From: a virus
Virus record (IMG/VR): IMGVR_UViG_3300034101_001509
Location: 1-54,299 of that record
Strand: one strand, 5' to 3'
Length of the DNA stretch: 54,299 nucleotides
Each line of letters starts with the position of its first letter. The stretch's first letter is position 1. Made by a program: the position numbers and the translations under genes. The notes under the pieces are model-generated. The model searched no databases. It had not been told where the DNA came from and saw only the letters and a program-made list of their open reading frames with translations. Positions 27,076-51,800 of the stretch are shown in pieces.

Positions 27076-27636
27076 TTATTTAGGTTCTTCTGCTGGTTTT
27101 TGTTGTATTGGTGGTTCGTGTGTTTTTACTGGAACCTTTTCAATTTCTTTATATGGTAATTGTTCAATATAATATCTTCTGGTAATTGGAGCATTCGCCT
27201 CATCTGGTTTAGATTTTTCGTAGTTTGAAAACCCTGGCATTTGAAGTGGACATGAGAGTCGAGGATAATCTAATTTGCTATATTCTTCATCCTGTGCTAA
27301 TAGCCATGTTCCTTTTCTATCGCCACATCCACAACCACCACAGAAGAATTTACCAGGAGTTGAACTTTGCTTTAAATATTCACATGGCGGCAAAACACCA
27401 CCCTGTTCTTTGTTTCCAAAGCAAGATACTACTCTAAGTTGTTTCATTGGAATTGTAACTTTTTCATTACCAAATCCACGGGAAGCAATTGCTGATGCGA
27501 AACTTTGCATCATAGTCAATTTTTCTTTGACTGCTCCCTCTTTTTTGATTTCTTCTTTTCTAAATTCAGGTTGAGTTGTTTGAGTTGTTTCTTCTGATTT
27601 ATTTTGATTATTTTTATTTTTACAATTACATCCCAT
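27076..27636 (-). CDS. Cys-rich hypothetical protein
   Basis: 186 residues from the ATG at 27636, chosen because ATGGAG stands 8 bases before it; an ATG at 27648 would add four residues and overlap the previous stop. It opens with MGCNCKNKNNQ and has a middle segment FFCGGCGCGDRKGTW with CPP/CPL cysteines around it, a pattern suited to binding one or two zinc ions. The C-terminus is Pro/Glu/Lys-rich (HEPPIQQKPAEEPK). No membrane segment is seen. It sits between the fibre cluster and the neck genes. No family is recognised; a small virion or assembly protein is possible. Confidence 0.5.
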   Translation of the reverse strand: MGCNCKNKNNQNKSEETTQTTQPEFRKEEIKKEGAVKEKLTMMQSFASAIASRGFGNEKVTIPMKQLRVVSCFGNKEQGGVLPPCEYLKQSSTPGKFFCGGCGCGDRKGTWLLAQDEEYSKLDYPRLSCPLQMPGFSNYEKSKPDEANAPITRRYYIEQLPYKEIEKVPVKTHEPPIQQKPAEEPK

Positions 27637-27647
27637 ATAGATCTCCA

Positions 27648-29150
27648 TTAGTATAGAATAATACGTCTAAAGAATAAAGCAGTTTCAACGTTTCTTTTAT
27701 TTATAAGAACAGTTCGATAATTTATAGGAATTATATTTGAAAAAGATTGTCCATAAACAAAAGATTTATTATTTAATTTACTACGATTTGTTTTTGAATT
27801 TAAATATTTTGTATTAAAAATACTAGACGAAATAACGTTAGCATATAGTTCAACATTATTTTCGAAAAGATATTGAGCATAGAAATTTAATTCATAAATT
27901 GAGGGAAGATAATAATCTATGAATCCATTTCTAGGTGTATTTTTAATTGTATTTGTAAGTGCTGTACTAAGTCCAATAAAATTATCAGCATTACCATAAG
28001 TATTATAATAACCATCCCACAAGGATGTTTTATAATCTACATCTAATTCATTTTCTAACAAAAATGGAACTGTATATTTTGTGGTATCGACAATTAATGC
28101 CCATTGACTATGTGTTCCTCCCTCGGGAGTGCCAACAAACCTAGAAGAATTTGGAGTTCCAAAATTTAAACTTCCGCGAATAACACTACTCTTTCCATTA
28201 TTTGGAGAAGGTTTGAATATTCCTATATAAATTCCACCTTGATATTCATCACCAACATTCAATTCTAAATCTTCAAAGGAAGATAAAGACATTTGTTGTG
28301 GTTGATATTTATTATTAATTTTTAATGGATTTGTTGGTTTTAATGAAGAGTTACAATATGGGTCGTCTGAATCTTGTTCTGGAACCCAATATCCATTACA
28401 TATTTCTCTGGGTGATATAGTACATGTATATTCATATGTACCATCAACAAGTTCTAATGTATAGCAAGATCCCATTTCAAAGCCTTGATATAGATTTGTG
28501 GACAATGCCATTCTAGTAACATATTCACTTGAGGCACATGTTATTGGAGATTGTCCAGCAATTAATGGTGGATTTCCACATCTACTATTTTCTGTAAAAA
28601 CAGAAGGATATACATCTGTAGATAAAGCAGCACAATCTGCTGATGTACAAACATCTTCACATTTTACATTTGTTGGCCAACCAGTATCTTCATCAAACTC
28701 TAAGTGACAACATGCTCTGGGTGCTCGAATATCTTGATCGTTTGAAACACAATAAGTTTCCCAATTACCATTTGCTAATTCTGGACAACTTCCTTCTGTC
28801 CACTTTCCACCAATTCTATTACATTCGCATTTTGTAACATTACTTCTTGTTCCCGATGTCAAATATGGATTTGACATTCCTTGAGAATATGTTGGTATTT
28901 GATTTAATTCTCCAGAAGTAACATATGAACATGAACAACAACAACCTCTTCTAGTATCTACATCTGGACATACTACAGAATTAGTATCTTCCCCTTTTGT
29001 TGGTACAAAATGACCACCTTCATTAAAGCACTCTATAAATGATTTTGAACTTCCAGTTCCTCCAGTTATACCACAACATACTCCATAAGCATTTAATAAC
29101 TTTGAGTAATCTATTGCTGGTTTAATTCTGGAACGAAATTGTAGTGTCAT
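27648..29150 (-). CDS. Cys-rich adhesin-like protein with lectin-like C-terminus
   Basis: 500 residues. Residues ~20-290 are packed with cysteines, including CC pairs in GVCCGITGGTG, RGCCCSCS and RACCHLEFDE, and look like divergent copies of the modules in the three larger neighbours. The C-terminal part has GDEYQGGIYIGIF (about 300-312) and YYLPSIYELNFYAQYL (about 411-426), the two landmarks of DUF1566/Lcl_C lectin-like domains. Unlike the neighbours it has no collagen-like repeat. It overlaps the 29.1-32.1 kb gene by four bases. It is likely a virion surface or fibre-tip protein for receptor binding; that role is inferred. Confidence 0.6.
   Translation of the reverse strand: MTLQFRSRIKPAIDYSKLLNAYGVCCGITGGTGSSKSFIECFNEGGHFVPTKGEDTNSVVCPDVDTRRGCCCSCSYVTSGELNQIPTYSQGMSNPYLTSGTRSNVTKCECNRIGGKWTEGSCPELANGNWETYCVSNDQDIRAPRACCHLEFDEDTGWPTNVKCEDVCTSADCAALSTDVYPSVFTENSRCGNPPLIAGQSPITCASSEYVTRMALSTNLYQGFEMGSCYTLELVDGTYEYTCTISPREICNGYWVPEQDSDDPYCNSSLKPTNPLKINNKYQPQQMSLSSFEDLELNVGDEYQGGIYIGIFKPSPNNGKSSVIRGSLNFGTPNSSRFVGTPEGGTHSQWALIVDTTKYTVPFLLENELDVDYKTSLWDGYYNTYGNADNFIGLSTALTNTIKNTPRNGFIDYYLPSIYELNFYAQYLFENNVELYANVISSSIFNTKYLNSKTNRSKLNNKSFVYGQSFSNIIPINYRTVLINKRNVETALFFRRIILY
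27698..27705 (-). promoter_or_regulatory. Possible late promoter inside the 3' end of the Cys-rich adhesin gene
   Basis: Exact TATAAATA on the minus strand, 62 bases before the ATG at 27636. It could drive the small Cys-rich gene, but it lies in coding sequence and the leader would be longer (~55 bases) than at the other sites. Confidence 0.3.
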
Positions 29151-32125
29151 GAATACTCGTTTGGACAGATTTCAAAATCATCACAATCATAATCACAAAC
29201 AATTGGAATACAAATCTCTTCATTATTTATGATAACTTTTACAAATTTAACAAAATCAGCAGAAGAATTAGTATCAGAATTATTAGTGAATGGCGTTGGT
29301 GGTGATGGTTGTTGTTGACCTGGAAATCCACTATTAGCACAATTATAATGTCCAGCAGCATCCGCGGAATTATTACAAGCACAAGTTCCTATCATTTTTC
29401 TTCTTGGAAAATTGCTTAATCCTAGAGCTTTTCCGTAGTGATCCATACATGGATCTTTAATAGAGGCACAAACTTCTTTACATGGATCATATTGTGCTGT
29501 ATCACAGATGCTTGCACCATCAACCATTATACACGATCCATAATTAATATCAAATCCGGATCCTAAAGGTTCTCCGGGTTGTGTTGGATCATCTGTTTCG
29601 GAGGAGCAGTGACCAGGACTTGCTGAAGAAGTATAATCTGCTCCCTGTGTAGTTGAACATGGGGAACTAGTAAGAGTACATAAATTAATTCCTCCACATC
29701 CACATATTGTTCTAATTTTTGAATCAGTTGATGCAGCTCCTGGTGAACTTCCTAAAAGAGTACTTAGACTTTCTATTGGATAACAACCCATTTCTGTAAG
29801 AATGTATTCTAGTATTTCTTGTTCCGATAACTGAGCACATAAATTTAAATCATATTGATCGCAAGCCGATCCGGGATTAGCAGTATTACAATTTGAAATA
29901 GTAGAACATCGATTGTTAGTTCCAAATAAATTTAGTTTTCTCCAAGCACAACACCTAGCAAAAGTATTAAATGCTCCAAAAACACCAGCACATCCAAGAT
30001 TTGTTCCACCTTGACCTGGGGTATCAGTTGGTCCACCTAATTGAAAATCTTGGCACGATAATCCTGGAGGTTTACCTCCTCTAGTTGTTATATTTCTTCT
30101 TACTGTTCGAAGAACTGCTTCTGTTGGTGAACCTGGAGGCGATTGTGCTGGAGCTGGAGATCTAGTACAATAAGAATATTGAATACAACAATCATTTCTA
30201 ACAAATTGACATCCATTAGGTCCAGATCCAGGTCCGGGAGGACCACCACCCGGTGGTGGTGGTGAAGTTTCAGGACCACTTCCTCCGTTATCTGGATCGT
30301 CTGGTCCGCCACCATCACCCGGTGATGGCGATGGAGTTGGTGTTGGTGTTGGAGTTGGAGTTGGTGTTGGAGTTGGTGTTGGAGTTGGTGTTGGTGTTGG
30401 AGTTGGTGTTGGAGTTGGTGATGGAGTTGGTGATGGTGATGGACTTGGTGATGGTCCAGGACTACACGATGGTCCACAAACACAACCACAACTTACTTCA
30501 TTACATTGTTTACCCGGACCCATAAAATTGCCGTTACTATCCACACAATCACTATAACTTTGAACGGAACATGTATATGTTCCGTCTGGGTTACATACAC
30601 AACATGCTCCATTTACTGTAGTGTTATCACAACAATCTACATCAATACATCCTTCATTTTCAGTAATTTGTTTTGATTTACCACCAAGAACTAACTCACA
30701 TTGAACTCTTGTATATTTTCCTAAACATACTCCGTCTTTACAACAAACTGCGTGATCATTCGGATCTGTTGGACATTGATTATAACAAAATCTTCCTAAA
30801 TTTCTTAATACTTGTGGTGGTACACTTTCATCGTCTGGTAGAGGAATATTCAATCCATCTGCGTTATAATCTCTACATTTAACATTTGGCCAATATTGTC
30901 CATTGAAAGTATCACAAAGAGAAACAGAAATATTTTCTATACATTTTCCGTTTGAACAACATACTCCATTTCCAGATCCACATGATTCTTTACAACTTTT
31001 TGCTGGAGTGAAAAATCCATACAATTGATTACATATATCTTTTGTTGTATAATCAACACATTCTAAAGTATTATCATTAATATTTCTATAACAGCAAGAA
31101 CCATATAAAAATCCAGGAACACATTGTCTTCCAGAATCTTCAATCCCATGACCACGATGTGAAACTGTTGCTAACCATGTATTTCCAGCATCATATGACA
31201 TTAATCCAATAATATTTTTACCACATGAAAGATAATTTTGATTTGGTTCAAAATAGATATTATCTGGAAAATTCCACACATTATCAGAATCAATCATTAC
31301 TGTTATTGAAACAATTTCATTTTGTCTAAAATCACCAGTTATACCTTGAATTCCAATTGGAGTTCTAACATTAAATACTCCAGCAGCGCGTGTATCTAAA
31401 AATATTCCTTGTGTAGTTCCCTCTCCTAAACCTTCAATTGATGGCAAACCTGTCAGTCCAACAAAATATTCTTTAGGAACAGGACCAACTTTGAGAATTT
31501 TTGAACCAGCATTTAAATGAGTTGCTGTATCTGAACTAGCACCCTGACTTGCTTCGGTAAACGTAAATCCAAATGCTCCACATATTCCTAGAGATATATC
31601 ATTTGCGTTTAGTGGATGATGTTTTAAATTTGCTCCATAAACAATATATGGAGTGTCTAGATACAACAACTCTCTTCCTGCCATTGTTGATGGATCATAA
31701 TTCCCAGGAAGATCATCTCCCCAATAAATCGTATCAATTGAAATATATTCATTATTTGTTCCTGCGTATGAAGCAACTAATGATCCATAGGCACATATAC
31801 CTTTAAATGTAAATGTTCCACCAGATATTGAATATAATAATCCTTCTCCATCTCCTATATTTTGACCACGAACAATTCCAGTAGTTTTATCCGCAGTTGT
31901 AGCACCCCTAAACGCACCAGTAGCACCAAATGTAGTTCCATCAGATAGAGTTATTATTATAGAATTATTTGAAGCACTAAAAGAAGAATAATAAGGTGCG
32001 ATATTTCCAGTTGCCCCTGTATTTCCAGTTGCCCCTGTATTTCCAGTACTTCCGGTTGCCCCAACAGGACCATCTGGACCAGAACTACCGTAAACTGTAA
32101 AATTAATAATTGCGCTATTGCTCAC
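29147..32125 (-). CDS. Collagen-like, Cys-module, Pro/Thr-stalk fibre protein
   Basis: 992 residues from a GTG at 32125 with AAGGG upstream. Order of parts: a short N-terminal collagen-like Gly-x-y stretch (about 16-42, GATGNTGATG type); a beta-rich domain to ~340; four Cys modules of form GxCC...C...C...G...C (343-555), e.g. NGVCCSNGKCIENISVSLC; an SP/TP-repeat and Pro/Gly-rich linker (552-640); and a second Cys-rich region with spaced CC pairs to the end, closing with CDYDCDDFEICPNEYS. No signal peptide or membrane helix. It is likely a trimeric tail or head fibre exposed outside the cell. It has no DUF1566-like end, unlike its three relatives. Confidence 0.65.
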   Translation of the reverse strand: MSNSAIINFTVYGSSGPDGPVGATGSTGNTGATGNTGATGNIAPYYSSFSASNNSIIITLSDGTTFGATGAFRGATTADKTTGIVRGQNIGDGEGLLYSISGGTFTFKGICAYGSLVASYAGTNNEYISIDTIYWGDDLPGNYDPSTMAGRELLYLDTPYIVYGANLKHHPLNANDISLGICGAFGFTFTEASQGASSDTATHLNAGSKILKVGPVPKEYFVGLTGLPSIEGLGEGTTQGIFLDTRAAGVFNVRTPIGIQGITGDFRQNEIVSITVMIDSDNVWNFPDNIYFEPNQNYLSCGKNIIGLMSYDAGNTWLATVSHRGHGIEDSGRQCVPGFLYGSCCYRNINDNTLECVDYTTKDICNQLYGFFTPAKSCKESCGSGNGVCCSNGKCIENISVSLCDTFNGQYWPNVKCRDYNADGLNIPLPDDESVPPQVLRNLGRFCYNQCPTDPNDHAVCCKDGVCLGKYTRVQCELVLGGKSKQITENEGCIDVDCCDNTTVNGACCVCNPDGTYTCSVQSYSDCVDSNGNFMGPGKQCNEVSCGCVCGPSCSPGPSPSPSPSPTPSPTPTPTPTPTPTPTPTPTPTPTPTPTPTPSPSPGDGGGPDDPDNGGSGPETSPPPPGGGPPGPGSGPNGCQFVRNDCCIQYSYCTRSPAPAQSPPGSPTEAVLRTVRRNITTRGGKPPGLSCQDFQLGGPTDTPGQGGTNLGCAGVFGAFNTFARCCAWRKLNLFGTNNRCSTISNCNTANPGSACDQYDLNLCAQLSEQEILEYILTEMGCYPIESLSTLLGSSPGAASTDSKIRTICGCGGINLCTLTSSPCSTTQGADYTSSASPGHCSSETDDPTQPGEPLGSGFDINYGSCIMVDGASICDTAQYDPCKEVCASIKDPCMDHYGKALGLSNFPRRKMIGTCACNNSADAAGHYNCANSGFPGQQQPSPPTPFTNNSDTNSSADFVKFVKVIINNEEICIPIVCDYDCDDFEICPNEYS
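30321..30450. repeat. Hexanucleotide repeat encoding a Ser/Thr-Pro stalk
   Basis: The plus strand alternates GGTGTT, GGAGTT and GGTGAT units, giving Thr-Pro or Ser-Pro pairs on the coding strand. The 6-base unit keeps frame if copy number changes. Both plus- and minus-strand shadow frames through it are artefacts of the repeat. Confidence 0.85.
32000..32080 (-). repeat. Collagen-like Gly-x-y coding repeat (29.1-32.1 kb gene)
   Basis: Tandem 18-base units, GGGGCAACTGGAAATACA type on the coding strand, encode GATGNT triplets with glycine at every third residue. Two plus-strand units are identical, suggesting recent duplication or homogenisation. Confidence 0.8.
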
Positions 32126-32129
32126 TTAA

Positions 32130-35100
32130 TTACCCTTCTATTTGTCCGCAACCTGGACATGCTACTGGACCTTCCGTATGTGGATCACACAATCCTTCAA
32201 GGATATCTATACATGATGAACATATTATAGATTGTTCATTTTGTTGAGTGACAGCATAGTATGCTAAAACAGTTTCAGTAAATCTAAAAGTATTACATGT
32301 AACTATAAGTGGAATTCTTCTAACTGGTCGTAAATGAGCAATTCTCGAATCTCTAGATCTAGAAGTCATCATTCCTAATTTATTTTCGTTACCTTCATCG
32401 ACATTAAATGTCTGAGTTAACATTTTTTGACCATTTGAAACTGCCATTGTAAACTTATAAGCATCATCTTCATTTAACCCATATGGATTTGTACTTGTTA
32501 TTCTATTTGTAGATAAATATGGTTCTAAATTAGGATTTATATTTTCTAAATTATAAGAATCTTTATCAAATGGATTTGTATTATCCCATGATATTAAACG
32601 AGAAACACTTGTAGAACTCCAATATTCTTTTCCTGCTAGTATTTGGTCATCGTTTATAGCAAGCGAAGCATTCAAATCTGCTAAATTACTATAAATGTAA
32701 TTCAATTCAATAATACTTGGAATATACCAATCATTATGACCATATGAATTTGTCGCATTTATGTCAGAAATTTGTCGTATTGCTGAATTTAATGGATTTT
32801 TCGCTGCCCATAAATTAGCATATGCTTCTTTAAATGCTTCTTTATTTGTTGTTATTTCTTCTTCAGATACAGATTCTTCCCATGCTGGTCCATTTCCAAA
32901 GCAAAATCTTCTATAAGCATTTGGATCTTCGGTGTCTCCTCTGAACCAATAACTTGTATTTCTTGTTGATGCTTCGTCGTGAAGTCTTGTTGTCAAAAGA
33001 CCATCTACTGGATATGTTGGTATTTCTTCATTTACTACAAATAATGGAACTCCATTATCATCAGCAAGATGAGTTCCCTGATTCATTCCCCAACTTAAAA
33101 GTCTAGAACCTTCAGGACTTTCTCCTTCACCCGAACCGACTTCAACATCTTCTGGTCCAATAATCAATGCCCATAGAATATGAATATCTTTAGACCCATA
33201 AACTTTTGTTGCCAAATATTTGTATAAATTATCAATTTGCCCATTACTACCTTCTTCTAAAAATTCAACAGCAAGACCAGATCCTACTAGTGAATATGAG
33301 AAAGTTCCTCGTTGTGGCGTATATCCAAATCCACCTTCAAACATAAATTCTGATGGCCATGTAATTCCATTTAAAGCATACGCTTGTTGTACAATTGGAA
33401 CTCCTGCCTTTAACATACAACGAGTATTTAATGAATCTACCGGTAAAATATTTGGATATGTTCTAGCAAAATAATCAATATTTCCTGTGTTATCTTGCCC
33501 TGCGGTTCCCTTACATGTTTTATATTTCCAACCAGAAACCGAAGTTTCTCCTCTTGGGAAAATTAAACATTCTAGTGGTTCTCCATTAGCAAGAGCAGGA
33601 TTTACATAACGATCACATGGATTTGGCATTCCAACAAATCCAACAAAATATCCTCCACCGATCTTATCTCCAGGTTGTAAACAAGAGAATGATTGATTTT
33701 CTCCAAATGCTTTACATTGATCATTTGCCACAAAATAATCATCTTGATAAGTGTATCCACAGCAAGAAGTTAAAGCACATTTTGTTCCAGATCCTTGAAA
33801 GATACCATCTTGATCTTGGCATTCTTGTGGGGTTAAATCTGGAGTACAATCTCTTCCTTTACAACAAGCTCCGCGAATATCAAAATGTACACAACAGCAA
33901 ACACTATCTCCTTCCTCTGCTTCACATGTAGATCCTGCTACGAAATGTGAATCGTATATTGAGTTACAATCTGTTTCAGAAAGATTAAAACATCTTCCCT
34001 GAACACAGCATTTTCCTATTTCTCTAGGAGAGCAAAAATTATCTGGACAGGTAAATAGTTGAGATCCTTCCCATACAAGAGAACAGGACTTTCCTCCATA
34101 AAATATTCCACCAAAGTCTAAACATCTTTCTTGTGTAGTATTTAAACATTTTGTTGTTTCTTCTTCTGGATCATATACACAACATGCTCCTTCAGAATAA
34201 CAATCAGAACTAGTAATTCTATTGTCACATGAACTATTGCTAAATCTTCCAGAGATAGAATCGCAATATGTCTGAGAAACATAATCTATACAAATTGTAT
34301 CTTCAAAATTATTTTTACAATAACAACAAGAACCTATTGATTCTCTTGTTAAATTTTGAGGAGCATATACATTTGCCTGAGACAATCCAGATGAAGGATG
34401 GAAAGAAAGTCTTTCCATTGTCGCCCCACTTGTAAATCCAATAATAATAGATTGTGATAATTGTATTCCAGAATCATTAAATGGAACTATAAATTTATTT
34501 GAATTTAAATTATAGGCGAATTGTGGACTAATCGTATTTTCTATAATCGAAGTACCAAATGTGCCACCAGTAATTCCTGCGTAATATGATAATGAAGAAT
34601 TATATGGAGTAAATGTCCAATTTGAAAATTTCCAATTTTTATTTAAATGAATAGTTTCTCTACTCATTAATTGATCTATAATCAATTGTCTCTCTGATGG
34701 AACCCATTTAGTATTTGGAGCAGATGCTGCTTTTAGTGAACCAGCACCAAATCCAGCGTTACTGTTTACATAAAGAATTTCTCCAGTATTTCCGAGTGGA
34801 ACATTTACATCAGCAACTGTAGCACCATACAAAAATACAACAAATGAATTTGAACTAATTCCTACAAATGACCCTGTAGTTATTGGTGTTGGTGTAGACC
34901 CTTCAATTGTTAGTGTTTTAAACGAAGCAGTTTGACCAGCAGAATAGTCTCTATTATTAGAATAAACAAAATCTGAAGATATTGAAACTGATTCTGGAGA
35001 GATGATACCAAGATCATTTAAACTATAATATTCTCCACTATTTGCTGATCCAGCATCACCTTGTAAATTTGAAAATTGAAAAGTTTTTCCATTTCCAATA

Positions 35101-35297
35101 AATGTTATATACGAATTGCCTGTAGAATACGATATTCCTGTAATTCCAAATCCAGTTGGTCCTATATTTCCAGTAATTCCAATCGGACCTGTTGGACCAG
35201 TAGCACCAGTTGGACCAGTAGCACCAGTTGGACCTGGATTTGCACCAGGAACATTTCCGGATATTAATTGAGTGAATCTTGATGAACCGTATATCAT
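32130..35297 (-). CDS. Collagen-like, Cys-module fibre protein with lectin-like C-terminus
   Basis: 1,055 residues. A collagen-like stretch at 21-50 (GPTGATGPTGATGPTG type) follows a short N-terminal anchor. A beta-rich domain runs to ~320. Four tandem Cys modules occupy 322-515: GSCCYCKNN, GACCVYDPEEE, GKCCVQGRC and GACCKGRDC, each followed by a Cys, a T/S-x-x-x-C and a G-x-F/Y-x-G-x-x-x-C end. The C-terminal region has GDKIGGGYFVGF (543-554), WYIPSIIELNYIY (857-869), YWSSTS and HLRPVRRI (989-996), the DUF1566/Lcl_C landmarks. It overlaps the upstream relative by four bases. A receptor-binding fibre is the best reading. Confidence 0.68.
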   Translation of the reverse strand: MIYGSSRFTQLISGNVPGANPGPTGATGPTGATGPTGPIGITGNIGPTGFGITGISYSTGNSYITFIGNGKTFQFSNLQGDAGSANSGEYYSLNDLGIISPESVSISSDFVYSNNRDYSAGQTASFKTLTIEGSTPTPITTGSFVGISSNSFVVFLYGATVADVNVPLGNTGEILYVNSNAGFGAGSLKAASAPNTKWVPSERQLIIDQLMSRETIHLNKNWKFSNWTFTPYNSSLSYYAGITGGTFGTSIIENTISPQFAYNLNSNKFIVPFNDSGIQLSQSIIIGFTSGATMERLSFHPSSGLSQANVYAPQNLTRESIGSCCYCKNNFEDTICIDYVSQTYCDSISGRFSNSSCDNRITSSDCYSEGACCVYDPEEETTKCLNTTQERCLDFGGIFYGGKSCSLVWEGSQLFTCPDNFCSPREIGKCCVQGRCFNLSETDCNSIYDSHFVAGSTCEAEEGDSVCCCVHFDIRGACCKGRDCTPDLTPQECQDQDGIFQGSGTKCALTSCCGYTYQDDYFVANDQCKAFGENQSFSCLQPGDKIGGGYFVGFVGMPNPCDRYVNPALANGEPLECLIFPRGETSVSGWKYKTCKGTAGQDNTGNIDYFARTYPNILPVDSLNTRCMLKAGVPIVQQAYALNGITWPSEFMFEGGFGYTPQRGTFSYSLVGSGLAVEFLEEGSNGQIDNLYKYLATKVYGSKDIHILWALIIGPEDVEVGSGEGESPEGSRLLSWGMNQGTHLADDNGVPLFVVNEEIPTYPVDGLLTTRLHDEASTRNTSYWFRGDTEDPNAYRRFCFGNGPAWEESVSEEEITTNKEAFKEAYANLWAAKNPLNSAIRQISDINATNSYGHNDWYIPSIIELNYIYSNLADLNASLAINDDQILAGKEYWSSTSVSRLISWDNTNPFDKDSYNLENINPNLEPYLSTNRITSTNPYGLNEDDAYKFTMAVSNGQKMLTQTFNVDEGNENKLGMMTSRSRDSRIAHLRPVRRIPLIVTCNTFRFTETVLAYYAVTQQNEQSIICSSCIDILEGLCDPHTEGPVACPGCGQIEG
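35148..35243 (-). repeat. Collagen-like Gly-x-y coding repeat (32.1-35.3 kb gene)
   Basis: Repeated GGTGCTACTGGTCCAACT units on the coding strand encode GATGPT triplets. The codons Thr and Pro dominate the x and y positions. T4-like phages commonly use such stretches as trimer-forming fibre shafts. Confidence 0.8.
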
Positions 35298-38200
35298 GGT
35301 GTATTCTTAAATATTGTTGCTGTTTGAGGATCAATATTCCATCGGGAAGAACTATAAGTTGCCCCTGATTGATTATTTAAATCTAATTGAAAAATATTTG
35401 TAACATTTGATCTTGGAAGTAATCCCGTTACAACTGTAGAAATTGTCAATCTTGGCACTTGCCAGAAGGTATTTTTTAATTGAGTGTCCGAATTACTATT
35501 ATAGTATCTTTGATCACATCGAACCATTCGTACTAATCTTAATTCTAAACGATCATCCAAATCATGAAATTTTGAAACTTTATAGTTACTAGTATTTTGA
35601 CTAAGTGTACTTGGATCAAATTTTATCGCCCAAGCATTTGTAAATTGTGATGTTTGATTGATACCAGAATTTAATGGATCTATACTCGCCACTGCACTCT
35701 GTCTTTGAATATATTGAGCAGTAGCTCCATCTTTCCAAGCACCAGTTGATGTCCACACATAAGACTTAGTATATTGAATATTTGCGAGAGGAGAATTGGG
35801 ACTATTAACTCCTGTAGGACCAACACCTGCCGAAGACCAATCTAGACTATTCAGTCTTGGATCTCCAATGACAATTCCACCAGCATTATTAATAGTTTGT
35901 TGTAAATTGTCATCTCTACATGCTTTTGCTATAAATCCAAGTTCATCTATACTTGGAATATACCAATGTGAAAGTGTTGGATATTGATTATTCAGAGCAC
36001 TATATCCAGGAAGAGAAACATTTAATAAACCTGTATGGTTTCCTGTTGGACCATCTACAGGAAAATATAAACGATTCCATACAGAACATCCCTCTGAAAT
36101 TGTGGTCTTATTTAAAGCAGGCCAACCACCATTATCTAATCCATTACTAATATTAACTTTTAATTGTATAATTCCTGTCCATCCAGGTATGGTATTTGTA
36201 GATGTAGGTAAAGAACTTAATCCTGATATTTCACCTGTTGCTCCATAAAATGATTTTAAATTTGATGGAAATAAACCACTTCCACTATACAAATAGTGTT
36301 CAGCAATTTGAGATTTTATTAGAGCAATTGTGTTATATATTCCATGATTCCTTGACCATTTACCACAAGATCCTGCCAATCCTGATTTTAAATATCTTCT
36401 AGATCTTAGTCCTGGATATTCTTCACAATTACTACATGAAGTAGTAATATCACAAAAACACGTTCGAAATAACACATCTAATGAGTTCGTTGCTTGAACA
36501 TTAGTTGCAGCACCTCCACCATAACCAAATGCTCCATCAATTTTTAATTGTTGATTTCCGGATACAGTTTGATATTCGTGAATTATAACAGAACCAGTAT
36601 TTGTAATATTAGTATAACAATCTGTAGTTGTTGATTCTGAAAATGCAGTAATATTAGTTGTTAATAAATCTGAAAATCCTAAAAGATCGCAATGGGATGT
36701 CCCACCATGACTCCACACGAAATTTTTAATATTATAATAAGCATATTGTAAACCTACTCCTCCTATGACACCACAATCAGCGTATCTAGAATTTTCCCAG
36801 TTTAGATTTCCCAGATCATTTACAGGTATCCATAAATTATCATTAATGAAATTTGTTCCATCAATTAATTTAATAAAATGATTTTGATTTGGAGCAGCTG
36901 AACCATTATAATTTGCATATTGTCTAAACATAACAGGATGTTTAGATACAATTAGTAACCATTTATCTTGATCACGATCGTGCTCAATAGTCGATACAAC
37001 ATCATTTAATGTAAATCCATATCCTCTAAGATCATAAAAACTTTGATAAATTCCTGCTGGTCTTTCTACTGCTCCATTTGATAAAGTAGAACCTGTGTAA
37101 AAATTAAATGCTTTTATTCTTGTTGTTCCTATTACTCCTGTCCAGAATGGATTGTTTGGATTAGAAGTGCTACTTCCTGCAAAATAATTACAAGAATTTA
37201 GTTCAACACCAGGATTTACATAACCACCAAATGCTGTATTGCCTAAACATTGAGAACCATTTGGATTGAAAATTCCAACTACAATGCCACCAGCAAACTC
37301 TTGACCTTTGACTATATTTTCATATGTTCCATTTGCTTTGCGAATTTTCCAAGGATAATTAGAAGTTCCATCACCATCACATAAATTAAATGAAGAAGGA
37401 GTACATGGACCATCTCCACAGATTTTTCCACAACCATAAAATAATCCAGATCCACCGTTACAATTTGCTAGTCCATTAACTTCATTTACACAAGATGCGC
37501 TACTGCTTGTAGAAGTACAACATCCACCAGTTCCTGTTGTACAAACATTAAATTGTTGTCCAGAACCATAAATGTATGAACATTTAATTCCAGGGCCTTG
37601 CCAATATTTGTTGAGACAATCCGGTTGAGTAGTCTCTGTACATAATCCAGTACCATCACAGCAAGCACCAATGTCACTGAAATAATCAATACAATCAATA
37701 GCATCAACATTTTTAATACAATCTGTTTTTTTTGTCCATTTATAGCGAGATTTATCATCATTTCCAAGTGCTTGACATTCACAAGCTAGTTTAAATTCAG
37801 ATGATCTTTGTATAAAATTATTTCCATCTTTATAACAGCAAACTCCAACTTCTGTGCTTTCGGCAGAACATGATGACCCATCGGTTATCCATCTGGGAGC
37901 ATCTGAATTACATGGATTAGGATTGGTAGAAGACTCTAGAGAACTAGCAGCATAACTAAATCCAGTACAATCGTTACAACATGTTCCAGGAGTAGTTTCA
38001 TCTACGCAAGTTAAATTGTTTACACATTGAGCACATGTTGTACAAGATTCTATCCGTGAATATCCTTGTGGGCATGATGGATTTGTACCTTGTTGGTCTA
38101 TACATAAAGTTCCATTACAACAAACGATTGTTATTGGAGTGTTGTCTTCACATTCAGAACAATCATTAACTACTGTCCCACCATCATTATTACATGCTTC

Positions 38201-39529
38201 TTGTAAATAATCGTAAACACAGTCAAATGGTTTTTGCTTACAGCAAGTTACCAGTAATGGTGATGGACCAGGTGGTGGACTAGATTCACAAGGATCACTT
38301 GGTCGATCAATTTGTACACCACCTTGACAACCAGTGGTTGTATTTGATTGATATACAATACTGTCTCCACCAGATTCTGGAGTATAACAACAATATATTG
38401 TTGTTGGTTGAGGTCCACCTCCAGGAATTTCATAAACTGGATCAGACAATCTATTTGATCCCGGACAATTGTTATATTCAGCACTCCATTCTACAACATC
38501 AGATTCAGAATTGTATAAACCATAATTTGCATACCAAATATTATCCAAAGATATCATATTGATGACATCATTATTTTCAGTAAAACATGGAGCATATTTT
38601 AAAGGCCATGATATTGAATAATTACCCGATTGAAGTGTTACTCCAGCAGATAAATTATCAGTTGTAGCATACTTGGTTAAAATTTCTCCAGTAATACCAG
38701 AAGGAATAATGATTGTTATTCCTTTAGCGATATCTGCTGCTGGAGGATTTCTAACCAATACAATTTGAGCAATTGGTTGTTCATTTACTTCTATTAAATG
38801 AGTCCATTCACTCAATATGAATGTATTTGCTTTTTCCCAATCTATAGACCAATAAAAATATCTACCAGCTGTACTTGAACCACTATTAGTATATGCTGTT
38901 TTCTTTATTGGTTCGACAAAGTGAACACGTTCTCCATAATTTAGAATTTGCATATCCACAGTCTTCTTTAAAATATCATATTTTGTTCCAGTAAGACCGT
39001 AGAAATAATTTGTAGAAGAATCCCTTACAACTAATTGTCCATCAGATCCTCCAGATATACCAAGATATGGAAGTCCTGCTAAATTATATGAAATATTAAT
39101 TTCTTCAGAATCGTTTAAAGATTCTATGCGAATGAATTGAAGATTATCATTTTTCGATGAAGTAGTAAATCCTCTAAAATTCAGAGTAGATAAGATATTT
39201 CCATCTGGAAAATTTTGATAACAAACTCCATGGAGTATTTCAAACGCATCTGTTGTTTGTGTTGCTCCTCCAGCAAAAATATAATAATTGCCTGGAGCAC
39301 CTTTTATATTTGCCGAAGTTATAGCAGAATTATCAGAAAATGTAGTAACAATATTTCCATCTACAAGTGTCATTCCAATAACACTTGGTCCACTAAAACC
39401 AGTATTTCCGGTATTACCAGTATTACCATTATTACCAGTTGGACCTGTCGAACCAGTATCTCCGGTTGGACCTGTTGTTCCGATAATATTTTTCTTTACA
39501 TAAGGACTGCTACCGTAAATATAACTCAT
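35294..39529 (-). CDS. Largest collagen-like, Cys-module fibre protein with lectin-like C-terminus
   Basis: 1,411 residues. Collagen-like 17-48 (GPTGDTGSTGPTG type); beta-rich domain to ~375; Cys-rich region 379-717 containing modules such as GTCCNDCTG, GVCCYKDG, GACCDGTGLCTETTQPDC and GGCCTSTSS; then GQEFAGGIVVGIF (743-755). A long insert precedes WYIPSIDELGF (about 1190-1200), YVWTSTG (about 1260) and LELRLVRMVRC (about 1335-1345). The last ~60 residues are a separate beta strand-rich tail. Same architecture as the next gene, so the two are paralogues of different age. It starts four bases after the stop of the 39.5 kb fibre gene. Confidence 0.68.
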   Translation of the reverse strand: MSYIYGSSPYVKKNIIGTTGPTGDTGSTGPTGNNGNTGNTGNTGFSGPSVIGMTLVDGNIVTTFSDNSAITSANIKGAPGNYYIFAGGATQTTDAFEILHGVCYQNFPDGNILSTLNFRGFTTSSKNDNLQFIRIESLNDSEEINISYNLAGLPYLGISGGSDGQLVVRDSSTNYFYGLTGTKYDILKKTVDMQILNYGERVHFVEPIKKTAYTNSGSSTAGRYFYWSIDWEKANTFILSEWTHLIEVNEQPIAQIVLVRNPPAADIAKGITIIIPSGITGEILTKYATTDNLSAGVTLQSGNYSISWPLKYAPCFTENNDVINMISLDNIWYANYGLYNSESDVVEWSAEYNNCPGSNRLSDPVYEIPGGGPQPTTIYCCYTPESGGDSIVYQSNTTTGCQGGVQIDRPSDPCESSPPPGPSPLLVTCCKQKPFDCVYDYLQEACNNDGGTVVNDCSECEDNTPITIVCCNGTLCIDQQGTNPSCPQGYSRIESCTTCAQCVNNLTCVDETTPGTCCNDCTGFSYAASSLESSTNPNPCNSDAPRWITDGSSCSAESTEVGVCCYKDGNNFIQRSSEFKLACECQALGNDDKSRYKWTKKTDCIKNVDAIDCIDYFSDIGACCDGTGLCTETTQPDCLNKYWQGPGIKCSYIYGSGQQFNVCTTGTGGCCTSTSSSASCVNEVNGLANCNGGSGLFYGCGKICGDGPCTPSSFNLCDGDGTSNYPWKIRKANGTYENIVKGQEFAGGIVVGIFNPNGSQCLGNTAFGGYVNPGVELNSCNYFAGSSTSNPNNPFWTGVIGTTRIKAFNFYTGSTLSNGAVERPAGIYQSFYDLRGYGFTLNDVVSTIEHDRDQDKWLLIVSKHPVMFRQYANYNGSAAPNQNHFIKLIDGTNFINDNLWIPVNDLGNLNWENSRYADCGVIGGVGLQYAYYNIKNFVWSHGGTSHCDLLGFSDLLTTNITAFSESTTTDCYTNITNTGSVIIHEYQTVSGNQQLKIDGAFGYGGGAATNVQATNSLDVLFRTCFCDITTSCSNCEEYPGLRSRRYLKSGLAGSCGKWSRNHGIYNTIALIKSQIAEHYLYSGSGLFPSNLKSFYGATGEISGLSSLPTSTNTIPGWTGIIQLKVNISNGLDNGGWPALNKTTISEGCSVWNRLYFPVDGPTGNHTGLLNVSLPGYSALNNQYPTLSHWYIPSIDELGFIAKACRDDNLQQTINNAGGIVIGDPRLNSLDWSSAGVGPTGVNSPNSPLANIQYTKSYVWTSTGAWKDGATAQYIQRQSAVASIDPLNSGINQTSQFTNAWAIKFDPSTLSQNTSNYKVSKFHDLDDRLELRLVRMVRCDQRYYNSNSDTQLKNTFWQVPRLTISTVVTGLLPRSNVTNIFQLDLNNQSGATYSSSRWNIDPQTATIFKNTP
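39386..39481 (-). repeat. Collagen-like Gly-x-y coding repeat (35.3-39.5 kb gene)
   Basis: Glycine at every third residue for about ten triplets, mostly GPT, GNT and GDT. Asn is more frequent than in the other copies, so the repeat has drifted. Confidence 0.78.
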
Positions 39530-39533: not shown

Positions 39534-40661
39534 TTATAGTCTCAATCTTGTTTCTATCGCTGCTATTCTTGATTCAAAATTATTTAATTTAGTTTCTAAA
39601 TTTTCTTCAGTAGAACCATATTTTAATTCTGTGGCGGTGATTGATGAAGCAGTAACAGTTTCTGGAACTGCGACTTGAACTGTTAGTGGTTTAACTTTAA
39701 TTCCAACTTTTACTCGTTGTGAAACAGTAACGTTTGATCCATCTTTACCATAAACTGCTATAGGTTGTGTTAAATTAATTATAGGAGTATATACTGAATA
39801 TACTTGAGCATTTGTTGGTGTAAGTTTTACAACGGAACTTGTCGTTGTTATTGATATTTGTTTACTAGTTGCTGCTAAATCTGCGTTTGGTCTTCTTAAA
39901 ATGTACACATACTTATTGGCTACATCAACAGAAACAACAGTTCCATTATATGAGGAGTTTATTTGTGTTACTGCTTGATTTCTAGCAATTGATCCTGGTA
40001 TTGATTCACTAACTGTTATTCTTTCAACAAATCCATATTTCTTTCCAAATTTAGAATAAAAATCTGGATATTCTAAGATTGGTAGTTCATGTGAAATAGA
40101 AGCATCTAAAAAACTTTCTTCAAAATCAGTATCTCCTAATAAAGTTTGAAGAGATCCTAAATTATTGATATCATTAAATGCTGCCTGAATATCTCCACCA
40201 ATTTTATATCCAAGATAATTAACCACAACTCCACTATATGATCCATGAGGTGATGCTTGATATACTGGTTTAACTACATGTTCTAAATTTGTTGGTGCTA
40301 AATTTTGAAGAATCCCAGCAGTCTGTCCACTTAAGAAATATATGTCATTTCCTCCAGAACCACCACCACTTCCCATATCAGCAAACTTAGACGAATCTAA
40401 AGAAATTGATCCATAAATTACAGTATTTAGTTTGTTTGAAACCGAATCATATGATTCTATGACTCCAAATACTTCTGAAGTTTCTGCTGTATTTGCTTTT
40501 GAAGCAGTATATCCTGAAGTTGTCACATCGTATCTAACAACTTGTCCAAGTGTTAGTCCTGATACAAAAGGTATCGAAACAATAAGTCTAGAACCTCCTT
40601 GTGTTACTGAGACTGTATTTATTGATGCTTGTATATTTGAACTATTACTACAACTTGGCAT
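39534..40661 (-). CDS. Fibre/adsorption protein with YFLSGQTAG domain and C-terminal coiled coil
   Basis: 375 residues. An N-terminal beta domain includes LGQVVRYDVTTSGYTASKA (38-56), VFGVIESYDS (64-73) and IYFLSGQTAG (107-116), and is shared with the upstream 784-residue protein. The middle is beta-rich with repeated Thr/Val strands. The C-terminus NLETKLNNFESRIAAIETRLRL is a heptad coiled coil that probably trimerises. Start ATG is twelve bases downstream of the previous gene's stop. It is likely a subunit of a tail-associated fibre. T4 whiskers or short fibres are possible functional analogues, but no direct similarity is visible. Confidence 0.6.
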   Translation of the reverse strand: MPSCSNSSNIQASINTVSVTQGGSRLIVSIPFVSGLTLGQVVRYDVTTSGYTASKANTAETSEVFGVIESYDSVSNKLNTVIYGSISLDSSKFADMGSGGGSGGNDIYFLSGQTAGILQNLAPTNLEHVVKPVYQASPHGSYSGVVVNYLGYKIGGDIQAAFNDINNLGSLQTLLGDTDFEESFLDASISHELPILEYPDFYSKFGKKYGFVERITVSESIPGSIARNQAVTQINSSYNGTVVSVDVANKYVYILRRPNADLAATSKQISITTTSSVVKLTPTNAQVYSVYTPIINLTQPIAVYGKDGSNVTVSQRVKVGIKVKPLTVQVAVPETVTASSITATELKYGSTEENLETKLNNFESRIAAIETRLRL

Positions 40662-40672
40662 ATATTACTCCA

Positions 40673-43027
40673 TTAAATCGGATAGCTTGCGTCAGCAACC
40701 ATATGTAGATTGATTACATCATAAGGAACAGCACCTTTATTAATATTTATTTTAACAGAAGTAGTATCTGCTGTCGTACTAACTGTGGCAGTGCCTGGTG
40801 ATCCTGCCGATCTTAATTGATCGTTATAACCTTTAGTTCCAGAAGTGGACTTTAGATCTCTGTATGCTGTGTAATTATACATTTCGTTTACTACACCTTT
40901 TGGAGAATAAATTGTAATAGTTGGTTCTTCTCGCATTTCAGTGGGCAACTTGTAAATTGTATATGGTGTTGTTGGAAGATATGTAAATGAAATTGTATTT
41001 AATACAGGATCTGTAGTATTCAACATTGTCTTTGTACCGATAGTTTGTGTATTAGTATAAGTTGAATAATAAAATCTTCTTGCTTTATTTAATTTACTTT
41101 CATATTTTTCAAATATATGCGGAGGTGAACTATAAGAACTAGAATAGACAACCATAGATGCTAAACTTACATATAGACTTGTTCCAATAGCTACCGCATT
41201 ATCATATGCTTCTTCAATCAATGGAATCAGATCAATACCAATTTCAACATAATCATCAGAATAAGTTCCTGCGGATAAACTAGAAACATCATATGTTAAA
41301 GTGTATTTTGTCCAATTAGTTGTTAAATCTATAGAACCTATTGTTTCTTTGCTAATCTGGGAACCACCAGAGTAACGAGCAAAATATACATTTGCTGAAT
41401 AGTTAATCATGCTACATTTTGCGTATAGACTTACAGTCACATCCCCACCATTAAATGTTTCTATATCTTCTATAACATGACCAACTGAATATTCTCCACC
41501 CGCAGGGTCTGCTCCACCGGGATCTGCTATACATTTAAGATCAATATAATATTGTGGAGTTCCTTCGACCTCTACGCTTGAAACACTAAAGGATTGACGT
41601 TGAATATATTGTGAACTTCCAGACGCAATACCACTCTGTCTTCTTATCCAATTATCAGCAAAATAAACATCTCCGGAAGTAGTATATTGTGAATCTCTAC
41701 CAGTTGATCTCTGCCATATTGAAAAATCACCATTGAATGCGAAATTCATTCCATTTGTTAATAATTCTGAACTTGCTGCTGATTTATATGTGCTAACAGA
41801 TCCAAGATATGAATTTGCTGATGGACGCATAGAAATATGCCAATAGGTTGGAGAAGTATCAAATACTTGACCAACAACTAAAAGACCACCATCAGCATCA
41901 AATCTATAATTATCTTGTAATCTGAGTTGACCAGTAACCCCAGATGCTGGTACGTTATATGTAAGACCAGATAGAACCCAAACGCCTCTTTTTGTTGCTG
42001 CTGTACTTATACTATTAGGAATGACTGTTGTAGATCCGTGTGTTATTATTTTATAAACATTATAACTTCCACCAGATTCATCAACACTTTCAATCATACC
42101 AACAACAAAATCTTCTTCGGGTGTAAAATCAAATACTGATATATTTGAAGGAGTAGATATTACACCATCTAAATTATTAGCAAAGTTTTGACTACCACTT
42201 AAGAACCAACCGTCAATGGCAGTTCTTCCTGTATTTTCTAACCATTGATTGAAGAATGTATTTCCTGCTAAAATATCTGGAGCAAATGAAACAAAGTTTC
42301 CTGCGGAAAATCCATAACTACTTGGATTTGTTATAGATTTAGAAATTTGAACATAAATTTTATTTGTTCCGGAAAGACCTTGTGATCCAGAATCATTTAA
42401 ATAATTTCCTCTATATTGAAGAACTACACCAGAAGTAGCACCAATTCCTAATATTACAGGTTTTGAAACATAACCAATTGTTGTTGGTTCAGTAGTTGTT
42501 AAATATCCAGCAGTTTGTCCAGAAAGAAAATAAACACAACCTGGAGATAAAGTTCCGCCAGATACTGTTTGAAAATTTCCATCAATTCTTCCTAGAACCG
42601 TAACTACAGAATAACTTGAATTTTGAGAAGATATTACTCCCAGAACCTCTGCTGAATCTGGATCATCTGCTCTTGCTGCGGTATATCCTGAAGAATTTAT
42701 TCTTACAACAGATCCAAATGTATATCCAGAAGTTCCTGTTGTTATCCCGGGAACTTTAAACGAACTATTTGGTATTACAACTTCTCCATTAAAACTAACA
42801 GGACCAGAAAATGTTAATCCTGTTTGTATGTTTCCAGAGGTTCCACCGATTGATACTGTAACAAGTCCTGTTGATAAATTTGTGGATGCTAAAACTCCAT
42901 CACCACTTGTAACACCAGATACAGTTATTTGATTCAATTTTGAAATGATTTCATCATTTTCTTTTATGAACCAATCATAAAATGTAGATGAACCAGTTAA
43001 TTGTGATATTGTATCATTAAATGCCAT
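40673..43027 (-). CDS. Tail-fibre-like protein with carbohydrate-binding-like module
   Basis: 784 residues. Two copies of the YFLSG-type beta domain: 100-210 (SVVRINSSGYTAARA, VLGVIS, VYFLSGQTAG) and a divergent one at 300-370 (VVGMIESVDESGGSYNVYK, VWVLSG). From ~425 there is NGMNFAFNGDFSIWQRST (426-443) followed by FADNWIRRQSG, the typical opening of the jelly-roll carbohydrate-binding module found near the tips of many phage fibres. Then EKYESKLNKARRFYY leads into the final domain. It most likely binds host surface glycans. The short N-terminal helix region (DWFIKENDEIISKLNQI) may attach it to the baseplate. Confidence 0.7.
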   Translation of the reverse strand: MAFNDTISQLTGSSTFYDWFIKENDEIISKLNQITVSGVTSGDGVLASTNLSTGLVTVSIGGTSGNIQTGLTFSGPVSFNGEVVIPNSSFKVPGITTGTSGYTFGSVVRINSSGYTAARADDPDSAEVLGVISSQNSSYSVVTVLGRIDGNFQTVSGGTLSPGCVYFLSGQTAGYLTTTEPTTIGYVSKPVILGIGATSGVVLQYRGNYLNDSGSQGLSGTNKIYVQISKSITNPSSYGFSAGNFVSFAPDILAGNTFFNQWLENTGRTAIDGWFLSGSQNFANNLDGVISTPSNISVFDFTPEEDFVVGMIESVDESGGSYNVYKIITHGSTTVIPNSISTAATKRGVWVLSGLTYNVPASGVTGQLRLQDNYRFDADGGLLVVGQVFDTSPTYWHISMRPSANSYLGSVSTYKSAASSELLTNGMNFAFNGDFSIWQRSTGRDSQYTTSGDVYFADNWIRRQSGIASGSSQYIQRQSFSVSSVEVEGTPQYYIDLKCIADPGGADPAGGEYSVGHVIEDIETFNGGDVTVSLYAKCSMINYSANVYFARYSGGSQISKETIGSIDLTTNWTKYTLTYDVSSLSAGTYSDDYVEIGIDLIPLIEEAYDNAVAIGTSLYVSLASMVVYSSSYSSPPHIFEKYESKLNKARRFYYSTYTNTQTIGTKTMLNTTDPVLNTISFTYLPTTPYTIYKLPTEMREEPTITIYSPKGVVNEMYNYTAYRDLKSTSGTKGYNDQLRSAGSPGTATVSTTADTTSVKININKGAVPYDVINLHMVADASYPI

Positions 43028-48846: not shown

Positions 48847-51800
48847 TTATTGACCACCCAATACTCCTATAGGCGTTTGCGATTTATTTGGATCATAATG
48901 TAAACCGTTTCTAGTTAAAGTTAATATAAAGAATGAACTCTTTACTCCGTAAATCATTTGTACAATTTCAGCAACCAACCAACGACCTGAAATTTTCTTG
49001 TATTCATTTGCTGTTTCTTCTGAAACATCATTTGCGTTTATTACTTCTACAATATCACCAATTTTGACATTTTCATTTGGTGGAATTGTAATTTTAATTT
49101 GTTGAGCATTTATTTGATTTGTCTGTGCTAATCTTCGAAGAGGAAGATCTAATGGTGTTTCCCAGAAAGTAGCATATGTACGGTCATATGCTAAATAATC
49201 TTTGAATTTAGATCCTTGTTCTGGACAATTACAACTACATGGAGAAGTCGGATCTATAAAATTACAACCCAAATAGTCTTTTCCTAACACTTCCTCTATT
49301 AGTTTACATTCATTTAGATCATTATATAACTTATAAAGTTCAAGATAAGTTGGTTCGGGTTCTGATGGAATCAAATATTGTGCCGGACAATTACAGTAGG
49401 GTTCAGCAGTACATCCATATCCTGACGGAATGGATCCACTAACTAAAGCATTTGGATTGGCACACTTAAGACCAATACTTTCACATGTTATATTCTTTGA
49501 TCTCGAAACGACTGTAAACTGTAAAGCAAAATTTCGATCAAAGAATTCATATTCCGTATCAACTGGTGGTGTAATTAATCCATACTCAGTTTCTCCGCTC
49601 AAATCATACTTCCAAATGTCTGTACTTACTATAGATGGACGATATAAAACATAATTAGCAGCAAGATAATTCATCAAAGAATCATTAAAATATTGATTCA
49701 TTGAATTATTAAGTGGATTTATGTGAGTAGAATCATCAGAATCGATATAGAATGATACTGACTGATCATTATTATTAAATAATGATTTAGCATTTGGAGT
49801 TAAACTCATCCAGTGCTCAAATTCACTTCCGTACCAATTCTTCCAATAATTTGGAGAAATTGTAAATATTGCTTTTCCTCCAAACATATCTCTTGCTTTT
49901 GTATTTGGAGATTTGAACATATTAGCAAATCTAACAGGAATGAAAAGATTTCTTGGCACAAATAAAGACCACCAAGATCTATGTGGTTTTAGTTTTCTAT
50001 AACTGTTTGGTAAAATATAAGAACCAACTACCGAAGTTCTATACAATGGATCAAATTGTTTTCCAGAACTTACACCGTAGTGATATAAAGATTCCATCCA
50101 ATCTTGAGAGTCATTTTCAAAATAATAACCACCACCATTGTGGAAATCTAAATCATAACCTCCACCATGTAAGTCTTCTTGTGTCGGATCATATGAATAA
50201 TATGGGAACTCGGTTTCAAATCCGGGTTCAGGCCATAGATCCATTCCATTATAATCTGTGCTCAGATAATCTGTTTTAGAAAGAACCGATCCAGTATCGT
50301 GATTCCACCATCTATAATAATTTCCTTTATCAATTCCTTGTAATTTTCTATTTACTGGAATATCATCTTTTATTTTCTTAACGGCAACATCAAATCCATA
50401 AGGATCCATCCCTATGACCGAAACATTATATTTTACACCTTGTCTACCGAAAGGTCCGGGAGTTAATTGTACAAGATATGGTAAGAAATATTCAACACCA
50501 GCATCTCTTATAAATCCATTTGGGAAATCTTGTATTCTGTCGAGTCCTATTGGATTTTTAAATTCAATACGAACATAAGAAGAAATTTCTTCTTTCTTTA
50601 TATTCGGTGGTTTTTTACCATCAGTGTCATAGAAATTAAATGTATTTCTAAAATTTTGTGTATTTACGGCATCTAAATCTGATTGAGCATTGCCATATGA
50701 AGAAATATTAAATTTTCCTACACTGTTTATATCTGCTAAACTATTTAAATTAATATGTAAAGAAGCATCCTCGACATATTCATTTGATCTAAATGAGGGT
50801 CCAGTTTCAGTAAACGGTGTATTGTCTATAAATGACGTAGGATCATCTGTCCCATCAGCATCTTTGAAACTAAACCAACTGTGTGCTTCTCTAGAACTTA
50901 TAAATCCTGTTTCATTATAACCTTGATCATAATATGGGTGTTTCGTACTACCCTGATCATTAGCAAAGAAAATATCATATAACCATTGACCAGTTAAATT
51001 TCCAGTTAAACCAATCTTATTTGCTAAAAGTTCATATCTACTTCCACGAATTTCTTTTCTAGTAATTTTCTTTATGTTTTGTAAAGATAGTGGAGAATTT
51101 ACACCACCAGAATCTCCATTTCTAAAAATATTTTCTCCTGGTGTTTTAGAGAAGAAAAACGCATTTCTATTATACCATTCGGTGTACGATAATGTCCATT
51201 TTTGATTGAATTCTTGAACTACTTTATCTCGTAATTGAATATACAATTCTTTCTCAACTTCGAGGACTTGTATTTCTGCAAGGCAAGTTCTTCTCAAAAC
51301 TTCCAAAGCAGTTGAACTCAAACAAGTAGTATTGTAGCAACCATCGGCGTTTAAACACTCTCTAGTAGTTGAAACTGTATTTCTATTCGTTATTGCTGGA
51401 ATTAAACCACTTTCACTGCCGTAATCAAAAAATGACCAATCTTTTATATCCTCATCCCAAAGATATGGAGCAGCATAAAGATATATTGGAGAATATGTTC
51501 TGGCAGCGAGTTCTGTCGTATATTTAATGAATCCACGAATTATTGGATCGTTAGAACAATCATGAAATGCTTCTGGTAAAACATATTTTATGTCTTCTAA
51601 TGTTGGAAGACTAGAAGGTCCAGTTGGGCCTGTCGGACCTGTTGGTCCCGGTGGTCCCGGTGGTCCGGGTGGTCCCGGTGGTCCGGGTGGACTAATGATT
51701 ACTGTACCACCGGGACCAACACAGGCCTCACAACTAATAACTTGGCTTTGAGGAGAACAAGCTGATGCTGGTACTCTTGTACAAAATTTTGTAACACCAT

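What the first reader, a model, noticed from the sequence alone, without database searches (positions are those of the whole stretch)
27648..39529. Array of four Cys-rich fibre proteins, three of them with collagen-like shafts, repeated GxCC modules and lectin-like tips
Three consecutive genes (1,411, 1,055 and 992 residues) share an N-terminal Gly-x-y collagen stretch, a beta-rich domain and Cys-module regions. The 1,411- and 1,055-residue proteins end in DUF1566/Lcl_C-like domains, and so does a fourth protein of 500 residues that lacks collagen. They replace the T4 gene 9-12/wac region between baseplate and neck. This looks like an expanded adhesion system made by duplication and divergence.
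Basis: partly seen in the sequence, partly recalled or inferred. Interest (0 to 1): 0.8.

Follow-up and report, generated by a model that had tools for sequence, protein, structure and literature searches.

The report
Cysteine-module tail-fibre array in phage
An uncultivated T4-type virus of bacteria carries four neighbouring, related proteins, built from short collagen-like rods, six-cysteine modules and tips folded like a Legionella adhesin, which are most likely its host-attachment fibres; this domain combination was not found in any phage genome record searched.

Summary
Four genes at 27648-39529 (- strand) encode proteins of 1411, 1055, 992 and 500 aa with 4.0-6.5% Cys (rest of window 1.1%). 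The first three start with 10-11 Gly-x-y triplets. All four contain ~40-residue GxCC modules with six near-invariant Cys; those of p500 are degenerate. p1055, p1411 and p500 end in Lcl_C/DUF1566-like domains; the p500 model matches the solved Legionella Lcl tip (Z 10.1, 121 of 131 residues). p992 lacks one. The genes sit between gp8-like and gp13-like genes, the known host-recognition slot of T4-like aquatic phages, where three cultured relatives carry Cys-poor proteins. Gene order is invariant in ten non-redundant related contigs, so the duplication is old. None of 50,697 phage records matched p1055, p992 or p1411. The module also occurs in proteins of Phycisphaerae/Planctomycetota. One correction: the lectin-like tip of p1055 is its most conserved part; the fastest-evolving part is the distal half of p992 (9-19% identity), which differs between sister contigs and is a separate gene in two relatives. 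That is the better host-range candidate. Virion location and adhesion are inferred. New variant of a known kind.

The parts
35294..39529 (-). p1411: anchor, collagen, variable Cys-module region, Lcl_C-like C-terminus
   Evidence: ORF, module HMM, profile comparison
39383..39481 (-). p1411 collagen stretch, residues 17-49
   Evidence: regex and Pfam PF01391 E 4.2e-5, below cut-off
37370..38422 (-). p1411 GxCC module region, residues 370-720
   Evidence: 57.9 bits in 5 modules, 0 of 1000 shuffles reach it
35495..37357 (-). p1411 Lcl_C-like C-terminal region, residues 725-1345
   Evidence: hhalign 90.6% to p1055, 85.6% to p500 C-terminal regions
32130..35297 (-). p1055: anchor, collagen, four GxCC modules, Lcl_C-like C-terminus
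   Evidence: ORF, Pfam, module HMM
35145..35234 (-). p1055 collagen stretch, residues 22-51
   Evidence: regex, Pfam below cut-off
33759..34340 (-). p1055 four GxCC modules, residues 320-513
   Evidence: 131.7 bits; related to the p992 block at 99.3%
32601..32819 (-). p1055 Lcl_C match, residues 827-899
   Evidence: PF07603 E 2.8e-6, 28 bits, below cut-off 34.9; 16 of 16 homologues match
29147..32125 (-). p992: anchor, collagen, four GxCC modules, hypervariable distal half, conserved end
   Evidence: ORF, alignments
32000..32089 (-). p992 collagen stretch, residues 13-42
   Evidence: regex; tail-fibre PHROGs match here
30473..31108 (-). p992 four GxCC modules, residues 340-551
   Evidence: 116.4 bits
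29261..30472 (-). p992 hypervariable distal half, residues 552-955, beginning with a Pro-Thr-rich linker
   Evidence: 9-19% identity per block; 65% between sister contigs whose other genes are 94-99%; tandem repeat 30321-30455
29150..29248 (-). p992 conserved C-terminal end, residues 960-992
   Evidence: identity rises again in the last 30 residues
27648..29150 (-). p500: four degenerate GxCC modules and Lcl_C-like C-terminus, no collagen
   Evidence: ORF, shuffles, fold
28350..29090 (-). p500 degenerate module region, residues 21-267
   Evidence: 24.2 bits against a shuffle maximum of 13.8
27660..28292 (-). p500 Lcl-like domain, residues 287-497
   Evidence: VIA-align Z 10.1, 2.9 A, 121 of 131 residues to 8q4e
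27076..27648 (-). p190: small conserved 8-Cys protein that follows the array; role unknown
   Evidence: present after p500 in all loci that reach it

Best explanation
The four genes encode the host-attachment fibres of a T4-type myovirus. p1411, p1055 and p992 would be trimers: a short N-terminal anchor (YGSS motif) fixes them to the virion, a collagen rod follows, then a rod of four or more six-Cys GxCC modules, probably stiffened by disulphides. p1055, p1411 and the collagen-less p500 present a conserved Lcl-like (C-type-lectin-fold) domain, probably for a common surface polysaccharide. p992 presents an exchangeable distal half that probably sets host specificity. Shown: gene order, domain content, homology, conservation pattern, and the fold of the p500 tip (by prediction). 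Inferred: trimers, virion location, disulphides, ligand and the division of labour. The set arose by an old duplication of a collagen-plus-module gene, before the sampled lineage diversified.
For: Slot between gp8-like and gp13-like genes; in Melnitz and Mosig the matching region holds genes annotated as tail fibres, in S-SM1 structural proteins, and it is described as the host recognition cluster (PMC7029224). Collagen stretches match tail-fibre PHROGs. Module homology and reciprocal module pairs. Lcl-like tips; Lcl is a trimeric adhesin that binds glycosaminoglycans (PMC11162425). p992 distal half is the fastest-changing part and is a separate gene in L017 and L022.
Against: No isolate and no proteomics, so virion location is untested. 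The p1055 model failed (pLDDT 38). Lcl_C scores are below the curated cut-off. Disulphides would have to form in, or after leaving, a reducing cytoplasm; no thioredoxin-family gene in seven related records. High conservation of the p1055 tip is unusual for a receptor-binding tip.
Confidence: 0.72

Rival explanations
1. The four are fixed structural parts (outer baseplate, whiskers or collar, standing in for T4 gp9-12/wac), with the Lcl_C-like domains as trimerisation caps; receptor binding is done mainly by other fibres such as p784 or the 1803-aa protein.
For: Invariant gene set and order; strongly conserved p1055 and p500 C-termini; p784 residues 426-710 resemble annotated tail fibres of Stenotrophomonas and Rhizobium phages; the DUF1566 domain of Lcl could act in trimer formation (PMC11162425).
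Against: The p992 distal half is hypervariable and replaced between sister contigs, as expected for a specificity determinant; p1411 is also variable.
Confidence: 0.2
2. The Cys modules bind metal (for example zinc) rather than forming disulphides; the fibres are attachment proteins all the same.
For: Phage structural proteins are made in the reducing cytoplasm (general knowledge); no thioredoxin-family gene found in related records.
Against: The same six-Cys module occurs in multi-module planctomycetal proteins, at least one (L059) with a start that reads like a signal peptide, a setting in which disulphides are usual. The pattern has no His.
Confidence: 0.2
3. The lectin-like tips are targets of a diversity-generating retroelement.
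For: DUF1566 is a common target domain of such elements (PMC4159848).
Against: No reverse transcriptase in the window or in seven related records of 34-118 kb; the tips are conserved, and the variable part is p992, by indel and replacement.
Confidence: 0.03

Closest known systems
Legionella collagen-like adhesin Lcl (PDB 8q4e; Pfam PF07603 Lcl_C)
   Same: Collagen rod plus C-terminal Lcl_C domain; the p500 tip matches the solved Lcl tip; p1055 and p1411 have the same order of collagen and tip.
   Different: GxCC module rod and another domain between collagen and tip; no N-terminal amphipathic helix was seen; encoded by a phage; scores far below the NCBIfam Lcl cut-off.
Host recognition cluster of pelagimyophages and cyanomyophages (PMC7029224)
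   Same: Same slot between the baseplate and neck genes of T4-like phages; collagen repeats noted there too.
   Different: Four fixed Cys-module proteins; examined proteins of Melnitz, S-SM1 and Mosig in this slot have 0-1.25% Cys, no GxCC module and no Lcl_C motif.
Collagen-like phage tail fibres (PHROG 5073, 6320, 366, 1806)
   Same: Short Gly-x-y rod in a fibre protein.
   Different: Matches are limited to the collagen stretch; modules and tips are not in these families.
GxCC repeat proteins of Phycisphaerae/Planctomycetota (unnamed)
   Same: Same six-Cys module, up to 13 per protein and 97 in one genome.
   Different: Not phage proteins; collagen or Lcl_C company was not checked there.
Uncultured Caudovirales phage DUF1566 protein A0A6J5SL79 (BFVD)
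   Same: Best viral structure match of p500 (Foldseek E 1.3e-3).
   Different: Only 169 aa; its own gene neighbourhood was not examined.

Membership tests
PF07603 Lcl_C (DUF1566) | Profile score above the curated cut-off | tested here: not met
   p1055 28 bits against 34.9; p1411 and p500 of the window not listed. Hence called Lcl_C-like, not filed as members.
PF07603 Lcl_C (DUF1566) | Fold of the Lcl C-terminal domain | tested here: met
   p500 287-497 against 8q4e: Z 10.1, rmsd 2.9 A, 121 of 131 residues, next chain Z 5.4. Not testable for p1055 (model failed) or p1411 (not modelled).
Legionella adhesin Lcl (NCBIfam NF046116) | Equivalog score above the curated cut-off | tested here: not met
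   p1411 16.5 and p1055 13.5 bits, collagen only, cut-off 500
Collagen triple helix repeat (PF01391) | Gly at every third position | tested here: met
   10-11 uninterrupted triplets in p992, p1055, p1411
Collagen triple helix repeat (PF01391) | Profile score above the curated cut-off | tested here: not met
   23.7 and 16.2 bits against 27.2; p992 no match listed
Host recognition cluster fibres of T4-like aquatic phages | Location between baseplate (gp8/VrlC) and neck (gp13/gp14) genes | tested here: met
   Window order against Melnitz, Mosig, S-SM1; definition from PMC7029224
Host recognition cluster fibres of T4-like aquatic phages | Presence in the virion and receptor binding | not testable with these tools
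   No isolate or proteomics
T4 gp9-gp12 / wac | Sequence relation to these proteins | tested here: inconclusive
   No PHROG so named matched the four, p375 or p784, but divergence may hide it
Diversity-generating retroelement target | Reverse transcriptase nearby | tested here: not met
   No PF00078 match in the window or in seven related records, all of which may be fragments

The most novel reading that the evidence does not exclude
A planctomycete-type extracellular six-Cys module was taken up from a cellular host and became the main building unit of phage fibres, giving disulphide-stiffened fibres matured in or after leaving a reducing cytoplasm (perhaps with p190 as helper), with specificity set by a replaceable, sometimes separately encoded, distal part of p992.
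Probability: 0.15. Interest if true: 0.7.

Novelty: new variant of a known kind. Interest (0 to 1): 0.5.

Why it matters
It gives an uncultivated T4-type phage lineage, found in many separate metagenome contigs, a defined candidate attachment apparatus; it adds an apparently unnamed six-Cys module to the parts of phage fibres; and it points to one stretch, the p992 distal half, as the likely host-range determinant. It also links the fold of a Legionella adhesin tip to phage attachment proteins.

Tried and rejected
The p1055 structure (mean pLDDT 38) was not used for fold searches. Foldseek alone on the p500 model gave no significant PDB hit (best E 1.4); VIA-align on the same candidates did. 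That list is filled by the C-terminal domain, so the fold of the p500 Cys region is untested. Profile searches of PDB sequences matched the collagen stretch only, apart from weak hits. Recent copy-number change: rejected. Retroelement: not supported on held data. Host: the cyanophage marker psbA was not found and no tRNAs were found in the window or loci scanned; host not identified. The sulfhydryl oxidase search is uninformative because no control genome rang.

Full report
What is there. The window is a 54,299-base virus record, held as a linear fragment, with the structural genes of a T4-type myovirus on the - strand. Read in gene order they run gp25, gp6, further wedge genes, p784, p375, p1411, p1055, p992, p500, p190, gp13, gp14, gp15, terminase, sheath, tube, portal, protease, scaffold, major capsid. 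The best portal matches, 48-52% identical, are phages of Methylophilales, Pelagibacter and cyanobacteria; the three whose records were opened are Kyanoviridae. The four genes of the finding have exactly the coordinates and lengths given.

Composition. Cys makes up 4.60, 6.45, 3.98 and 4.18% of p500, p992, p1055 and p1411, against 1.11% in the remaining window proteins. p992, p1055 and p1411 begin with a short stretch containing YGSS and then 10-11 uninterrupted Gly-x-y triplets. BLAST relates the three over long stretches (p992-p1055 E 4e-21; p992-p1411 4e-15).

The module. An HMM of the repeated unit gives a consensus whose core is GACCVCNSDGTGKCLDYTTKAECDAFGGVFMGPGKSCGSIC. Across twelve diverse copies a Gly and six Cys, including the CC pair, are invariant. 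Scores far exceed shuffled sequence in p1055, p992 and p1411. In p500 four weak copies together also exceed all 1000 shuffles, with an HMM that contains no p500 sequence; of four p500 homologues tested, two are equally clear and two are marginal. In the AlphaFold model of p500 these stretches show recurring short strands and a helix. Profile comparison of individual modules pairs module 1 of p1055 with module 1 of p992, and module 4 with module 4, as duplication of a whole block predicts.

The tips. Lcl_C (PF07603) is found in all 16 p1055 homologues (best E 1.1e-7), below the curated cut-off for the window protein. By profile comparison the C-terminal regions of p1411 and p1055 (90.6%) and of p1411 and p500 (85.6%) are related, those of p1055 and p500 more weakly (37.7%); the matches are short motifs, and comparisons of these regions with the other segments stay below 1%. 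The p500 model (mean pLDDT 76) matches the solved tip of Legionella Lcl at Z 10.1, the next chain at 5.4, with mainly C-type lectin-like domains after that. The best BFVD match is a DUF1566 phage protein. In a distant relative (L172) the p500 equivalent is two genes, a Cys-rich one and one that matches Lcl_C, which fits p500 being two joined parts.

Relatives. The order p1411-p1055-p992-p500-p190-gp13 is kept in each of ten non-redundant loci that reach from p1411 to gp13 (L004, L006, L008, L011, L022, L023, L028, L036, L039, L045), and in the more distant L172, apart from the split. There is no copy-number change. No record among 50,697 phage genomes matched p1055, p992 or p1411 by tblastn. 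The proteins examined in the same slot in Melnitz, S-SM1 and Mosig are Cys-poor, with no module and no Lcl_C motif. That slot has been described as the host recognition cluster of pelagimyophages and cyanomyophages; the paper mentions collagen repeats and neither cysteine nor DUF1566 (PMC7029224).

Where the diversity is. By 50-residue blocks, p1055 is most conserved in its tip (up to 73%). p992 falls from 38-68% in its first 550 residues to 9-19% between 551 and 950, and rises again at the C-terminus. In sister contigs L006 and L011 the other genes are 94-99% identical, while the p992 middle is 65% and the lengths are 907 and 1053; L044 and L050 show a weaker form of the same trend. In L017 and L022 the distal half is a separate gene that ends with the same kind of C-terminal sequence. 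The distal half of p992, not the lectin-like tips, therefore has the signature of a host-range determinant (inference).

The module outside phages. It is sporadic even there: 2 of 49 genomes at a strict threshold. Whether the phages took it from such bacteria is open; their host is not known.

Mechanism. The best-supported reading is a set of attachment fibres: N-terminal anchor, collagen rod, Cys-module rod, then either a conserved Lcl-like tip (p1411, p1055; p500 without collagen) or a replaceable distal half (p992). Lcl is a trimer whose tip binds glycosaminoglycans (PMC11162425), which makes a polysaccharide ligand plausible here. Trimers, virion location, disulphides and ligand are inferred. 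How disulphides would form in proteins made in the cytoplasm is unexplained; no thioredoxin-family gene was found in the window or six related records, which may be fragments.

Verdict. A real, well-defined domain combination, for which no description was found in the papers searched, in a known place and of a known kind (phage attachment fibres): new variant of a known kind, moderate interest.

Noticed in passing
27076-27648 (-): p190, a small protein with 8 Cys (MGCNC start, CGGCGC core), always directly after p500 and 59-62% identical even in distant relatives L172 and L179; no family matches it.
   Followed up: partly
48847-54258 (-): The 1803-aa protein upstream of gp25 has its own pure collagen patch (GPPGPPGPPGPPGPTGPTGPTGPS, residues 859-882).
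   Followed up: no
39534-43027 (-): p784 and p375, next to the array, share a 118-residue stretch (44% identity); p784 residues 426-710 resemble tail fibres of Stenotrophomonas and Rhizobium phages.
   Followed up: partly
L172:9729-11104: The p500 equivalent is split into a Cys-rich gene (246 aa) and an Lcl_C-like gene (211 aa).
   Followed up: partly
L179:1-5778: A 1925-aa open-ended protein with 217 Cys, 34 CC pairs and 11 modules stands in the place of p992, before the p500 equivalent.
   Followed up: no
L059, L083, L119, L130: Bacterial proteins, several from Phycisphaerae, made largely of 9-13 GxCC modules; no Pfam model hit the phage copies of this module, so it may be an unnamed cellular domain.
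   Followed up: partly
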